A stretch of 64,000 nucleotides of DNA from Clostridia bacterium DTU025 (GTDB taxonomy: Bacteria > Bacillota > DTU025): positions 1-64,000 of the forward strand of contig LFSP01000043.1 in the NCBI GenBank assembly GCA_001513145.1, in the 5' to 3' direction. This document shows, piece after piece, positions 42,687 to 57,029 of the stretch (positions are counted from its first letter, which is position 1; each line of letters begins with the position of its first letter). The position numbers were made by a program, and so were the translations under genes. The notes beneath the pieces are model-generated. The model ran no database searches. It was not told the DNA's origin and saw only the letters and a list, made by a program, of their open reading frames with translations.

Positions 42687-44288
42687 TTGAGGATGAGACG
42701 TCCGGTGCCGCTTGGCACTGTGGAGAGCGCGCCGCCAGGGGGAGGCGTCGTCGCCCGCGTCGAGGAGCTGCGGAGGCTCCTCGCTGAAAGCAGCGACGTG
42801 CTGGTCAGGTATTTCGGTGGAGACGGGGGTGGGGAAGGCCAGGGCGCCCAGCTGGACGCCGCCATCCTATGGATCGATGGGTTGGCGGACCTCTCCCTGA
42901 TGACGCAGGGCGTGGTCGGGCCGCTGAGCGCGGCGGTGGATGACTACGCCAGGGGTCGGAGCGGGCGGGGCGCGGACGAGTGTGGCCACGCGGAGCAGGA
43001 CGAGGGGGCGCCCCTTCAGACCCTTGGGCAGCCTTTCCGCATGGAGGAGCACCGGCTCTCTGCGGCGGCAGTGCGGCGGCTTCGCGACCCTGCCGAGGCC
43101 GCGATGCTCGCCGTGCGCGGCCACACGCTGGTCATCAGCGCAGGCGACCCGGACATCCTGGCCTGCAACACCTCCGCTTACTTCGGCAGGCAGGTGCAGG
43201 AGCCGTCGAACGAGTCCACCATCACCGGCTCCAAGGAGAGCTTCGTGGAGTCGCTGCGGGTGAACACGTCGCTGATACGTCAGCGCGTCGCCAGCCCCAG
43301 GCTGCGGGTGGAGGAGCTCTCGATAGGCCGCATCAGCCGAACCAAGGTTGCCGTGATTCACATCGACGGCATCGCCAACGACGCCGTCGTGAACGAGGTC
43401 AGGCAGAGGTTGTCCATGGTGGACGTGGACGCCGTTCACGAGCTAGGGCACCTCAAAGAGCTCATAGCCGACGCGCCGTATTCCCTGTTCACCACTATGC
43501 TGCGCACGGAGAGGCCTGACCGGGTGGCGGCGGCGCTCCTTGAGGGCAGGGTGGCGCTCCTGGCGGACTCCACCCCCTTCGCCATGGTGGTCCCCCAGAC
43601 GTTCATCATGACCATGACTACTCCCGAGGACTACTACGAACGTTTCTCCATCGGCACGGCGACCAGGGTCATCAGGATCCTGGCCTTCATCGTGTCGCTG
43701 CTGCTTCCTGCGTCCTACGTTGCGGTCATCACCTTCCACCAGGAGCTGTTGCCGACGCCATTGATCCTCAGCATCGCAGCCCAGCGGGAGGGGATCCCCT
43801 TCCCGGCGGCGTTTGAGGCGATACTCATGGAGCTCACCTTCGAAGTGGTGAGGGAGGCCGGGATAAGGCTGCCCAGGCTGGTGGGGCCCACCGTCAGCAT
43901 CGTGGGGGTGCTGGTGCTGGGGGATGCCGCCATCAGATCCGGGCTGGTGTCGCCCATAATGGTGATCGTGGTGGCCGCCACAGGAGTGGCCTCCTTCACG
44001 GCGCCGTCATACAGCACCGCCATGGCAGTGCGGGTGCTGAGGTTCGTCTTCCTCGCGGCCGGTTCGGCGCTGGGGCTGTATGGGGTTACCGTATGCCTTC
44101 TCACGTTGCTGGCGCACCTTACCGCCCTGGAGTCCTTCGGCGTGCCGTACATGTCTCCGGTGGCGCCGCTGGTGCCAGAGGACCTGCGAGACGCCCTCTG
44201 GCGGGTGCCGTGGTGGCTGATGAGGCGACGGCCTTCGGAGGTGCAACCCAAGGACACGCGGAGACATCGGGGAGGCGAAGGCAGTTGA
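42687..44288 (+). CDS. Spore germination protein, GerA (GerAA/GerKA) family
   Basis: A 533-aa subunit of a nutrient germinant receptor in the inner spore membrane. The family segments are PSNESTITGSKESFVESLRVNTSLIR, RTKVAVIHIDGIAN, the ELIADAPYSLFTTMLRTERPD stretch and a C-terminal membrane part with helices including RILAFIVSLLLPASYVAV and ILMELTFEVVREAGIRLP. The N-terminal cytoplasmic region has a Gly/Glu-rich insert. The start is TTG 42687 (or ATG 42693) after GGTGAGGG. Its stop overlaps the next gene by 4 bp. It shows that the host makes endospores. Confidence 0.93.
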   Translation: MRMRRPVPLGTVESAPPGGGVVARVEELRRLLAESSDVLVRYFGGDGGGEGQGAQLDAAILWIDGLADLSLMTQGVVGPLSAAVDDYARGRSGRGADECGHAEQDEGAPLQTLGQPFRMEEHRLSAAAVRRLRDPAEAAMLAVRGHTLVISAGDPDILACNTSAYFGRQVQEPSNESTITGSKESFVESLRVNTSLIRQRVASPRLRVEELSIGRISRTKVAVIHIDGIANDAVVNEVRQRLSMVDVDAVHELGHLKELIADAPYSLFTTMLRTERPDRVAAALLEGRVALLADSTPFAMVVPQTFIMTMTTPEDYYERFSIGTATRVIRILAFIVSLLLPASYVAVITFHQELLPTPLILSIAAQREGIPFPAAFEAILMELTFEVVREAGIRLPRLVGPTVSIVGVLVLGDAAIRSGLVSPIMVIVVAATGVASFTAPSYSTAMAVRVLRFVFLAAGSALGLYGVTVCLLTLLAHLTALESFGVPYMSPVAPLVPEDLRDALWRVPWWLMRRRPSEVQPKDTRRHRGGEGS

Positions 44289-46618
44289 AAAGGGCAGGCG
44301 GCGTGTCAGGCCGCAGCCTTGGGGCTCTGGCGATCCTTGTGCGACTCACCATACTGGTCACCTCGCTGCCGTGGTCAGGCGGGGACTTCCCGCACCAGAG
44401 CGCGTGGATAGCGGCGGCCGCCGGGTCGGTGCTGGCAGTCCCATTCATGTGGCTCATGGTTGCGGCAGTGTCAGGGGACCCGCCGGAGAGCCTCATAGCC
44501 AAGGCACGCAGCCGTATCGGACGCTGGGCAGTGCCGGTGCTGGCGCCGGTGGTGGCTGGGTACTGGCTCATCACCGCAGCGACGTACCTAAGAACCACAG
44601 CCGAGGCGTTCGTCGTGTCGTCCATGCCGTCAACGCCAGTGGCGGTGCTGATGCTGCCCCTAGCCGTGGTGAGCGCCGGGATCGCCCGGCGAGGCATAGG
44701 GTTGGTGTGCGCCCTTGCTGACCTGCTGGGGATCGTGGCCTGCGCTGTCGTGCTGTTGGTGGTGGCCGCCACGGCGGGGCAGTTCCAGCTCTTGAACCTC
44801 AAGCCTCCGCTGCCTGACGGCGTGTCAGTGCTGACGGTTCAAGTGGTGGAGACCGCGCACCTGTGGAGCCCGGCGAGCCTGATCTGGATGGTCTACCCCC
44901 GGATCACCGACGAGAAGAAGCGAAGTCCCCTCAGGGCGCTCTTGGCCGCGGTGGGGGTTGGGGGATTCCTCATCGTGGTGGTGCGCGTCGCCATCGCGGC
45001 CGCCCTCGGGCCCCTCGTGGATCAGCTGCCTTACCTCTTCTATGACCTCGCCCGCGTGGCGACGATAGGAGGTTTCCTTGACCAGGTCGAGGTGCTGGTG
45101 ATGGGCACGTGGCTGTTGGGCACCGGGGCCGTCATGGCCGGGCTGTACTGGGCGGCGGCGGAGGCCATCGGTGAAGCGCTGTCGGTACATGCCAGAGGTA
45201 TCTTCACGTATCCACTGGCCGCAGCCAGCGCCGTGCTGGGGCTTTCCATGTTCGAGGACGCGATGGAGCTGCGCAACTTCATATCGCTGAGGGGTTCAGG
45301 CGCACTGGAGCTGGCCGTCATAGTGGGCATATCTGTATTGATGCTCATTGGAGACTGGCTGAGGCGCCCGAGAGGGCGGCAGACCGCCGCCTGTGTGCTG
45401 GCGCTGTGCTTCATCGCCGCCGGCACGTCAGGCTGCTGGGACAGGCGGGAGATCGAGACCCTCGGCTTCGTGACGGCATGTGCCATCGACACTGCCGACG
45501 CCGGAAGCAGGCCTGCAGATGCCGGCCTAGTGCAGGTGTCGGTGCAGCTGGTAAAGCCCTGGGCGCTGAGCATGGGGGAGAGGGACAGCACGCGTGAGAG
45601 GGCCTTCTCCACCGAGACCGCAACTGGGCTCACGGTGTTCGAGGCCGTCAGGAACCTGAACGAAGCATCGCCGCGCAGGCCCTTCTGGTCGCACAACAGG
45701 TGGCTGCTGTTTGGCGAGGACTTCGCCAGGGCCGGGGTGGAAACGGCCCTGGACTTCTTCGCAAGGGACGGCGAGACCAGGATCCTGACGCAGATGGCGG
45801 TGCTTGACGGTGGGCGCGGATGGGATCTGCTCTGGGCCGAGTTCGAGATGGAGCCGCTGCCGGCCGAGGGAGGACGGGGAATGCTCCTCGGGGCGACGTC
45901 TGCCATAGGAACCACAGTATCCACCACACTGAAAGACTTCCTCATCGCACTGGAGGATCCAGGCGCTGATCCTGTGGCGCCGCGCGTGGTCATCGTGGCG
46001 TACTCCGACAAGCCTTCAGTGTCGGGTGACCTGCTGAGGGATGAGATAGAGACCACAGCCCAGCTCAGCGGCCTAGCCGTGTTCCGCGACGACAGGCTCG
46101 TGGGGTGGCTGGACCGGGCCCAGACCAGGGGCTACAACTGGATCCGCGGGAAGGTGGATTCCACGATCATATCGATCCCGGCGCCTGACGCCGACGACCC
46201 TCACGATTTCAGGCAGTACCTGTCCCTGGAGGTGCTGCGGGCCGGGTCGCGCGTGAGGGTGGAGGCGGATGACGAGTCAGGAAAGGTGCGGGCCACAGTG
46301 GAAGTGACGGTGAAAGCTGCCATAGGCGAAGCCCGCCCCCCGCTGAAGCTGGAACAGGAGGAGGTAGTCTTCTCCAGGATCGAGCAGCTCATGGCCGAAG
46401 AGGTGCGCCGCGAGGCGCTGGATGCGGTGGAGCACGCCCAGAGGCTCGAAGCCGACATTTTCGGCTTCGGAAGGCTGCTGATGGCCTCGGATCCGAAGGC
46501 GTGGAGACGACTCGAGGACAGGTGGCGCCAGGTGTTCCGCGAGATGGAGGTGGACGTGCAGGTGAAGGCCACGATAAGGCGAACGGGACTTGCCAGCGGC
46601 CGGTTCACCGTGCGCTAG
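44285..46618 (+). CDS. GerB-GerC fusion: germination permease joined to Ger(x)C lipoprotein
   Basis: One uninterrupted 777-aa frame covers two normally separate germinant receptor subunits. Residues 1 to about 365 are a GerB-type permease of about ten helices (LGALAILVRLTILVTSLPW; WSPASLIWMVYPRI). Residues about 366-777 are Ger(x)C: a signal-like helix (QTAACVLALCFIAAGTSG), lipobox Cys384 and the family opening CWDRREIETLGFV, then FWSHNRWLLFGEDFA and a C-terminal domain. Sizes add up to two normal proteins. An internal ATG (45341) falls in the last GerB helix and could start a separate GerC, but lacks a good ribosome site. The start is TTG 44285, 11 bp after GGGGAGG, overlapping the GerA gene by 4 bp. 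Confidence 0.88.
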   Translation: MKRAGGVSGRSLGALAILVRLTILVTSLPWSGGDFPHQSAWIAAAAGSVLAVPFMWLMVAAVSGDPPESLIAKARSRIGRWAVPVLAPVVAGYWLITAATYLRTTAEAFVVSSMPSTPVAVLMLPLAVVSAGIARRGIGLVCALADLLGIVACAVVLLVVAATAGQFQLLNLKPPLPDGVSVLTVQVVETAHLWSPASLIWMVYPRITDEKKRSPLRALLAAVGVGGFLIVVVRVAIAAALGPLVDQLPYLFYDLARVATIGGFLDQVEVLVMGTWLLGTGAVMAGLYWAAAEAIGEALSVHARGIFTYPLAAASAVLGLSMFEDAMELRNFISLRGSGALELAVIVGISVLMLIGDWLRRPRGRQTAACVLALCFIAAGTSGCWDRREIETLGFVTACAIDTADAGSRPADAGLVQVSVQLVKPWALSMGERDSTRERAFSTETATGLTVFEAVRNLNEASPRRPFWSHNRWLLFGEDFARAGVETALDFFARDGETRILTQMAVLDGGRGWDLLWAEFEMEPLPAEGGRGMLLGATSAIGTTVSTTLKDFLIALEDPGADPVAPRVVIVAYSDKPSVSGDLLRDEIETTAQLSGLAVFRDDRLVGWLDRAQTRGYNWIRGKVDSTIISIPAPDADDPHDFRQYLSLEVLRAGSRVRVEADDESGKVRATVEVTVKAAIGEARPPLKLEQEEVVFSRIEQLMAEEVRREALDAVEHAQRLEADIFGFGRLLMASDPKAWRRLEDRWRQVFREMEVDVQVKATIRRTGLASGRFTVR

Positions 46619-46623
46619 GCTGG

Positions 46624-46857
46624 ATGAAGACCTTTGCGGTGGCTGTGGTGGTGGCGGGATTTGCGGTTATCTGGGTCGTCGAGCGCAGGGCGCTCACCCG
46701 GAGCCGGGCCAACCGCCGGGAGGTGGTGGCCTTCGCGGCTGTGATGGCCCTGAGCTTCGCGCTGTGCGTCGCGGTGGCGGCGGACCTGCCGGTGCCCAAT
46801 CCCTCCAAGTGGGTGACGGACGCCAGCAGCTGGCTGATGCGGCTGTTCTCGCCATAG
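46624..46857 (+). CDS. Small two-helix membrane protein of the germination locus
   Basis: A 77-aa protein with two hydrophobic helices (TFAVAVVVAGFAVIWVV and VVAFAAVMALSFALCVAV) joined by a basic loop. It starts 5 bp after the GerB-GerC gene, so it is in the same operon. Small membrane proteins of this kind often follow gerABC operons and tune receptor activity; the exact family is not recognised. The ribosome site is weak. Confidence 0.65.
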   Translation: MKTFAVAVVVAGFAVIWVVERRALTRSRANRREVVAFAAVMALSFALCVAVAADLPVPNPSKWVTDASSWLMRLFSP

Positions 46858-54876: not shown

Positions 54877-54995
54877 GCCTCGCACCTCCAGAGTCTCTGG
54901 ATCATTATACCCAGTTGCCGACGGCGCCGAAATCGCCCGACGGGTCTAGCTATCTGGCTGACCTCGTGGTATCATAGTGATGAAAAGCACATAAG

Positions 54996-55135
54996 TGGCC
55001 TTCGGGGCAAGGTGTGATTCCTGACCGGCGGTGATGGCTCCCGTGACGGGGGCTTAGTCCGCGAGCTGCTTCGCAGCAGAACTGGTGAGATCCCAGTACC
55101 GACGGTATAGTCCGGATGGGAGAAGGCGGTGCAAT
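54996..55135 (+). ncRNA. FMN riboswitch (RFN element)
   Basis: The conserved RFN blocks are seen in order: CTTCGGGGCAAGGTGTGATTC, TGACCGGCGGTGAT, a variable stem (GAGCTGCTTCGCAGCAGA), AACTGGTGAGATCCCAGTACC, GACGGTATAGTCCGGATGGG and GAGAAGG. FMN binding would favour the terminator at 55155-55181 and stop expression of the riboflavin transporter gene downstream. Confidence 0.95.
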
Positions 55136-56954: not shown

Positions 56955-57029
56955 GCGGATGTAGCCCAGCGGTAGGGCAACGGCTTCCCAAGCCGTGGGT
57001 CGCGGGTTCGAATCCCGTCATCCGCTCCA
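56955..57029 (+). tRNA. tRNA-Gly (anticodon CCC)
   Basis: A full cloverleaf can be folded: acceptor GCGGATG/CATCCGC, D arm GCCCAGCGGTAGGGC, anticodon arm ACGGC-TTCCCAA-GCCGT, T arm GCGGGTTCGAATCCCGT and an encoded 3' TCCA. The anticodon is CCC, reading GGG. Confidence 0.97.

What the first reader, a model, noticed from the sequence alone, without database searches (positions are those of the whole stretch)
44285..46618. GerB permease and GerC lipoprotein fused in one frame
The two subunits of the spore germinant receptor are normally separate. Here there is no stop, and the GerC signal-type helix with lipobox Cys384 is internal. This raises the possibility of cleavage and lipidation from within a polyprotein, or of a fused receptor with fixed 1:1 stoichiometry. 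An internal ATG at 45341 is the alternative.
Basis: partly seen in the sequence, partly recalled or inferred. Interest (0 to 1): 0.62.

Follow-up and report, generated by a model that had tools for sequence, protein, structure and literature searches.

The report
Fused germinant-receptor B and C subunits
In this spore-forming bacterium two normally separate parts of the nutrient sensor that wakes spores, a membrane sensor and an outside lipoprotein, are encoded as one continuous protein; the same fusion sits twice in a finished genome of a cultured bacterium, so it is real and not a sequencing slip.

Summary
Window 44285-46618 (+) is one open frame of 777 residues: a GerB permease (PF03845, residues 38-314) followed by a complete GerC (PF25198 + PF05504, 386-768), with the lipobox cysteine at 384. 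It lies in an intact operon: gerA, gerBC, then a small two-helix D-subunit-like gene. Assembly error and internal initiation are unlikely: GerB ends normally (WLRR) only 22 residues before the Cys, and the only nearby ATG has no Shine-Dalgarno sequence, whereas 121 of 124 unfused gerC genes have one. The same fusion occurs in a relative (G006) and twice in a finished chromosome whose length, 2,690,058 bp, is that of Carboxydocella thermautotrophica 41T. It arose at least twice, perhaps four times, and is rare (4 of 399 genomes of the phylum). Best model: one uncut chain in which GerC's signal peptide became an eleventh membrane helix, holding GerC outside beside GerB at 1:1. Lipoboxes of fused genes are off-consensus (T, A, N, N at -3), weakly favouring no cleavage; but the cysteine is kept and lgt and lspA are present, so processing from within the chain is not excluded. 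A new, recurrent variant of GerA-type receptors.

The parts
42687..44288 (+). gerA: GerA-type receptor A subunit, 533 aa, first gene of the operon
   Evidence: PF03323 E=8.3e-165 over residues 27-517
44269..44275 (+). Shine-Dalgarno sequence GGGGAGG of gerBC
   Evidence: duplex with the 16S tail -11.2 kcal/mol
44285..46618 (+). gerBC: fused GerB permease and GerC, 777 aa; TTG start overlaps the gerA stop (TTGA)
44396..45226 (+). GerB Spore_permease domain, residues 38-314, APC-type fold in the model
   Evidence: PF03845 8.4e-24; model matches ApcT, AdiC and GkApcT
45287..45361 (+). last GerB membrane helix (TM10, residues 335-359), running into WLRR as in unfused relatives
   Evidence: AlphaFold2 model; relative G005 reads ARWLRRR shortly before its stop
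45341..45343 (+). in-frame internal ATG, the only ATG that could start a separate gerC; lies inside the TM10 coding stretch
   Evidence: Shine-Dalgarno energy -3.3; median of unfused gerC -9.6
45374..45427 (+). former GerC signal peptide, now TM11 (helix, residues 364-381), preceded by an Arg-rich linker
   Evidence: local pLDDT 60-67, so position uncertain
45434..45436 (+). lipobox Cys384 (AGTSGC-W)
   Evidence: aligned with the lipobox Cys of fused and unfused GerC
45440..46588 (+). GerC ectodomain, residues 386-768
   Evidence: PF25198 7.3e-34, PF05504 1.7e-43; best PDB match 3N54 GerBC, E=1.9e-11
46624..46857 (+). D-subunit-like gene, 77 aa, two hydrophobic helices, third gene of the operon
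   Evidence: homologues sit directly behind gerC in fused and unfused operons: G005 8.5e-9, G002 1.4e-7, G006 8.6e-7

Best explanation
gerBC encodes one polypeptide that works as the joined B and C subunits of a GerA-type germinant receptor. Shown: one reading frame, both domains complete, intact operon, recurrence in other lineages. Inferred: GerB (10 helices, both ends in the spore core) senses the germinant in its APC-type pocket; the Arg-rich linker stays inside; the former GerC signal peptide crosses the membrane outward as TM11 and is not cut; the GerC ectodomain sits outside on GerB and GerA, tethered by protein rather than by lipid alone. This gives one GerC per GerB and would make lipidation by Lgt (GerF) dispensable for anchoring. 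The fusion arose by losing the gerB stop, through substitution or a frame-changing indel at the very tight gerB/gerC junction.
For: Continuous frame with both domains. GerB is complete to WLRR and GerC is complete from its signal helix, 22 residues separating WLRR from Cys384; in unfused pairs the gerB stop is a median 64 nt before the Cys codon, so little but the stop is missing. Same architecture in G006, twice in G061 and once in G015. G061 contig C1 is 2,690,058 bp, the published length of the finished C. thermautotrophica 41T chromosome at 247x (PMC6085454). gerA directly precedes gerBC in both G061 copies and in G015. No good Shine-Dalgarno before possible gerC starts: window ATG -3.3, G061 +0.8 and +1.0 at the nearest candidates, against 121 of 124 unfused at -4 or better. 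D-subunit gene kept behind fused gerBC. AlphaFold2 mean pLDDT 89.5, helices 335-359 and 364-381 joined by a short turn. Fused lipoboxes miss the strict motif in 4 of 4 loci against 45 of 124 unfused, p=0.02. Literature puts GerAC outside, contacting GerAA and GerAB, in predicted A-B-C 1:1:1 units (PMC11841064).
Against: The Cys is kept in every fused protein and lgt and lspA are present in all four genomes. TM11 has not lengthened: 15-18 residues from last charge to Cys, as in unfused signal peptides, median 16. The TSGC lipobox of the window also occurs in unfused GerC of Desulfosporosinus, and the p=0.02 ignores shared ancestry. TM11 is among the least confident parts of the model. No expression or protein data.
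Confidence: 0.62

Rival explanations
1. Polyprotein: GerBC is made as one chain, Lgt modifies Cys384 from the outer face and LspA cuts before it, releasing a normal lipidated GerC and a GerB with an extra C-terminal helix.
For: Cys and Gly at -1 invariant in all fused proteins; signal-like helix length unchanged; lgt and lspA present; window lipobox TSGC is used by unfused GerC.
Against: All fused lipoboxes are off-consensus at -3, and Carboxydocella has NQGC and NSGC while its own unfused GerC have LSGC and TSGC. The Trp next to the Cys is conserved as well, so retention of the motif need not mean lipidation. I know of no bacterial precedent for Lgt and LspA acting on an internal signal helix (own knowledge, not searched).
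Confidence: 0.22
2. Separate initiation: GerC is translated from an internal start (ATG 45341 or a nearby GTG or TTG), possibly beside the fused form.
For: In-frame ATG 45341 gives a 31-residue signal peptide; a GTG 37 codons before the Cys has Shine-Dalgarno energy -7.1. G006 has an ATG 17 codons before its Cys with -5.5.
Against: ATG 45341 at -3.3 is weaker than nearly all real gerC starts and than the median internal in-frame start codon (-4.4); the -7.1 GTG is within the range of such internal codons. Carboxydocella has no usable site.
Confidence: 0.1
3. Sequencing or assembly error hides a stop or frameshift at the junction.
For: The window comes from a 52-contig draft assembly; a usual arrangement in a relative (G005) is an ATGA overlap in different frames, so one indel could join the genes.
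Against: Real gerC genes have a start codon just before the charged n-region; here there is none between WLRR and the helix, so an indel hidden there would leave GerC without a start. The architecture is found twice in a finished 247x genome and once in a second genome of that genus.
Confidence: 0.03
4. A decaying receptor that no longer works.
For: The GerC end branch is long, 1.12, and GerB scores below the TIGR00912 cut-off; in G015 one fused operon lost gerA and half of gerBC by a 3.0 kb deletion.
Against: Three intact, tightly packed genes; both domains complete; codon-position G+C constant across the junction; dN/dS about 0.3 for the G061/G015 fused pair, from only 11 changed codons.
Confidence: 0.03

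Closest known systems
GerA-type germinant receptors (B. subtilis GerA, GerB, GerK)
   Same: Same A, B and C domains, gene order A-B-C, APC-like B subunit, GerC ectodomain like 3N54, optional D subunit
   Different: B and C are one polypeptide; GerC signal peptide is internal and its lipobox is weak
Heteromeric amino acid transporters SLC7/SLC3 (LAT1-4F2hc), an analogy drawn for GerAB/GerAC in PMC8617281
   Same: APC-fold transporter with a partner that crosses once, N-terminus inside, and places an ectodomain on top; the fused TM11 would match that topology
   Different: No homology shown between GerC and SLC3; here one chain instead of two; spore receptor, not animal transporter
Permease-fused substrate-binding domains of ABC importers such as OpuA (from memory, not tested here)
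   Same: A lipoprotein-type ectodomain fused behind a permease, membrane helix replacing the lipid anchor
   Different: Unrelated proteins; importer, not spore receptor

Membership tests
GerA-type germinant receptor | A subunit (PF03323) encoded directly upstream | tested here: met
   gerA 42687-44288, E=8.3e-165, overlapping gerBC
GerA-type germinant receptor | B subunit of Spore_permease family with APC-type fold | tested here: met
   PF03845 84.4 bits, cut-off 23.4; fold matches ApcT and AdiC. Below the stricter TIGR00912 cut-off
GerA-type germinant receptor | C subunit with Spore_GerAC N- and C-terminal domains | tested here: met
   PF25198 and PF05504, TIGR02887 255 bits over 163, 3N54
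GerA-type germinant receptor | B and C are separate polypeptides (typical rather than essential) | tested here: not met
   One frame without stop; the same genomes carry both fused and separate forms
GerA-type germinant receptor | C is an N-terminal lipoprotein with lipobox | tested here: inconclusive
   Cys and Gly kept, but internal and off-consensus at -3
GerA-type germinant receptor | Forespore expression and germination phenotype | not testable with these tools
   Needs experiment; sigma-G promoter not searched
D-subunit proteins (GerUD type) | Small two-helix membrane protein next to the receptor genes | tested here: met
   46624-46857, homologues behind gerC elsewhere; description of the class in PMC4661057. 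Sequence homology to GerUD itself not tested

The most novel reading that the evidence does not exclude
Lgt and LspA recognise and cut an internal signal helix behind ten membrane helices, so that one membrane polyprotein yields both a permease and a lipidated receptor subunit.
Probability: 0.2. Interest if true: 0.75.

Novelty: new variant of a known kind. Interest (0 to 1): 0.42.

Why it matters
Subunit stoichiometry and contacts of germinant receptors rest on models. A natural, repeated B-C fusion says directly that the GerB C-terminus and the GerC N-terminus can lie side by side and that 1:1 is tolerated. It also offers a clean test of an open point: whether lipidation of GerC is needed only for anchoring. 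And it gives a single-chain handle for purifying a receptor core. Carboxydocella, a cultured genus, carries it.

Tried and rejected
Stop-codon readthrough: several search hits span gerB and gerC with one in-frame TGA or TAG, but in those read a start codon follows the stop, several with a clear Shine-Dalgarno site, so they look like ordinary adjacent genes. A single origin of all fusions: spoken against by the GerC tree, where the window's 31-row clade (support 100) excludes Carboxydocella; within each of the two pairs it is not settled (AU p=0.10 and 0.13), so the four origins counted are reported as two to four. Long GerC frames in other loci (L047, L048, L050, L068, L086) hold no GerB domain. 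Literature searches for a described GerB-GerC fusion found none in the held library, which lacks most subscription papers.

Full report
What is there. Window 44285-46618 (+) is an uninterrupted frame of 777 residues. Pfam assigns Spore_permease to residues 38-314 and the two GerAC domains to 386-569 and 595-768, all above curated cut-offs; TIGR02887 (GerC) is far above its cut-off and TIGR00912 (GerB) below it, so the GerB half is divergent. The start is TTG 44285, sharing bases with the gerA stop (TTGA) and preceded by GGGGAGG at good spacing (-11.2 kcal/mol). Upstream is gerA. Downstream, five bases after the stop, is a 77-residue gene with two hydrophobic helices whose relatives lie behind gerC in other operons, fused or not; it fits the D-subunit class described for B. 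megaterium GerUD (PMC4661057). So the operon reads gerA - gerBC - D.

Is it an error? In unfused relatives gerB ends and gerC starts almost at once; the stop lies a median 64 nt before the GerC Cys codon. In G005, of the same family, the genes overlap as ATGA in different frames, after ARWLRRR. In the window WLRR is followed after 22 residues by Cys384, with no start codon between WLRR and the helix and only a GTG inside the helix. An indel hidden there would leave GerC without a start. Third-position G+C is the same on both sides (0.81, 0.84 at the junction, 0.82). Decisively, the architecture exists elsewhere: G006 (DUWJ01000128.1), G061 in two paralogous operons, and G015. G061 contig C1 has 2,690,058 bases, exactly the published length of the finished circular chromosome of Carboxydocella thermautotrophica 41T at 247x (PMC6085454); the identification rests on that length. 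G015, of the same genus, is probably another Carboxydocella (inference). Its second fused operon has been lost by a 3.0 kb deletion that took gerA and the first half of gerBC.

How common and how often. In 399 genomes spread over the phylum, 297 have a matching gene and 4 genomes (5 loci) have a clean fusion (only two candidates per genome were scored, so this is a minimum). Among 62 distinct unfused gerB-gerC pairs 12 are in one frame, one stop away from fusion. A GerC tree of 129 rows puts the fused rows in four places. A careful tree of the window's clade shows G006 as sister of the unfused G005 (100/100) and the window as sister of both (94/93), which means two fusions, or one fusion and one fission; a joint clade is not rejected (p-AU 0.10). 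The two Carboxydocella paralogues likewise are not separated firmly (p-AU 0.13). I therefore claim at least two origins and up to four. The same genomes keep unfused receptors: G000 has receptor operons on C13 and C35 with separate gerC, G061 has at least two.

One product or two? Possible internal starts were scored for pairing with the 16S tail. Of 124 unfused gerC genes, 121 reach -4 kcal/mol or better (median -9.6; the best candidate start of each gene was taken). The window's ATG 45341 has -3.3, weaker than the median of internal in-frame start codons of the same gene (-4.4); a GTG further up has -7.1, inside that range. G061 has +0.8 and +1.0 at the nearest candidates. Separate initiation is therefore unlikely, most clearly in Carboxydocella.

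Cut or not? Topology fits an uncut chain: GerB should have ten helices with both ends inside (established for APC-type proteins), the linker GDWLRRPRGRQ is Arg-rich, and GerC belongs outside. The AlphaFold2 model (mean pLDDT 89.5, pTM 0.67) has helix 335-359 and helix 364-381 joined by a short turn, the second at pLDDT 60-67. Foldseek matches the ectodomain to 3N54 and the permease to ApcT, AdiC and LAT1. The lipobox -3 residues of the fused loci are T, A, N, N; 79 of 124 unfused GerC meet the strict motif and none of the four fused loci do (p=0.02, ignoring relatedness). Carboxydocella's NQGC and NSGC contrast with LSGC and TSGC in its own unfused GerC. Against this, the Cys never changes, the helix has not lengthened (15-18 residues), TSGC occurs in unfused GerC, and lgt and lspA are present. 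I favour the uncut chain at about 0.6 and processing at about 0.2.

How it probably works. In B. subtilis, GerAB binds the amino acid in an APC-type pocket, GerAA is predicted to form the channel and GerAC lies outside touching both, in predicted 1:1:1 units (PMC8617281, PMC11841064). The first of these papers compared GerAB/GerAC with SLC7/SLC3 transporters, where a single-pass partner holds an ectodomain over an APC transporter. A GerBC chain with TM11 would have the same topology in one molecule. The stop was lost where the two genes already touched, so no new contact had to evolve; this would explain why it can recur. What benefit, if any, fixed it is unknown.

Verdict. Ordinary receptor parts in an uncommon, real and recurrent arrangement. 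New variant of a known kind.

Noticed in passing
46624-46857 (+): Gene of 77 aa, two membrane helices, D-subunit-like, conserved behind gerC in many operons of this phylum although Pfam has no family above cut-off for it.
   Followed up: partly
L193 position 3782 against L194 8472-11485: In G015 a 3.0 kb deletion relative to C. thermautotrophica removed gerA and the first half of one fused gerBC, leaving a 288-codon GerC remnant: receptor loss in progress.
   Followed up: yes
L136, L137, L138, L139, L151, L152, L158: gerB and gerC adjacent in the same frame with one TGA or TAG between; the start after the stop is often TTG. These are one mutation away from fusion; readthrough was considered and looks unnecessary.
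   Followed up: partly
54994-55131 (+): FMN riboswitch (RF00050, 110 bits); two tRNA genes at 56955 and 57152.
   Followed up: no
L040 1-1435 (G000 contig C34): A gerC at a contig end whose upstream genes are missing from the assembly; it may belong to a fourth receptor operon of this genome.
   Followed up: no
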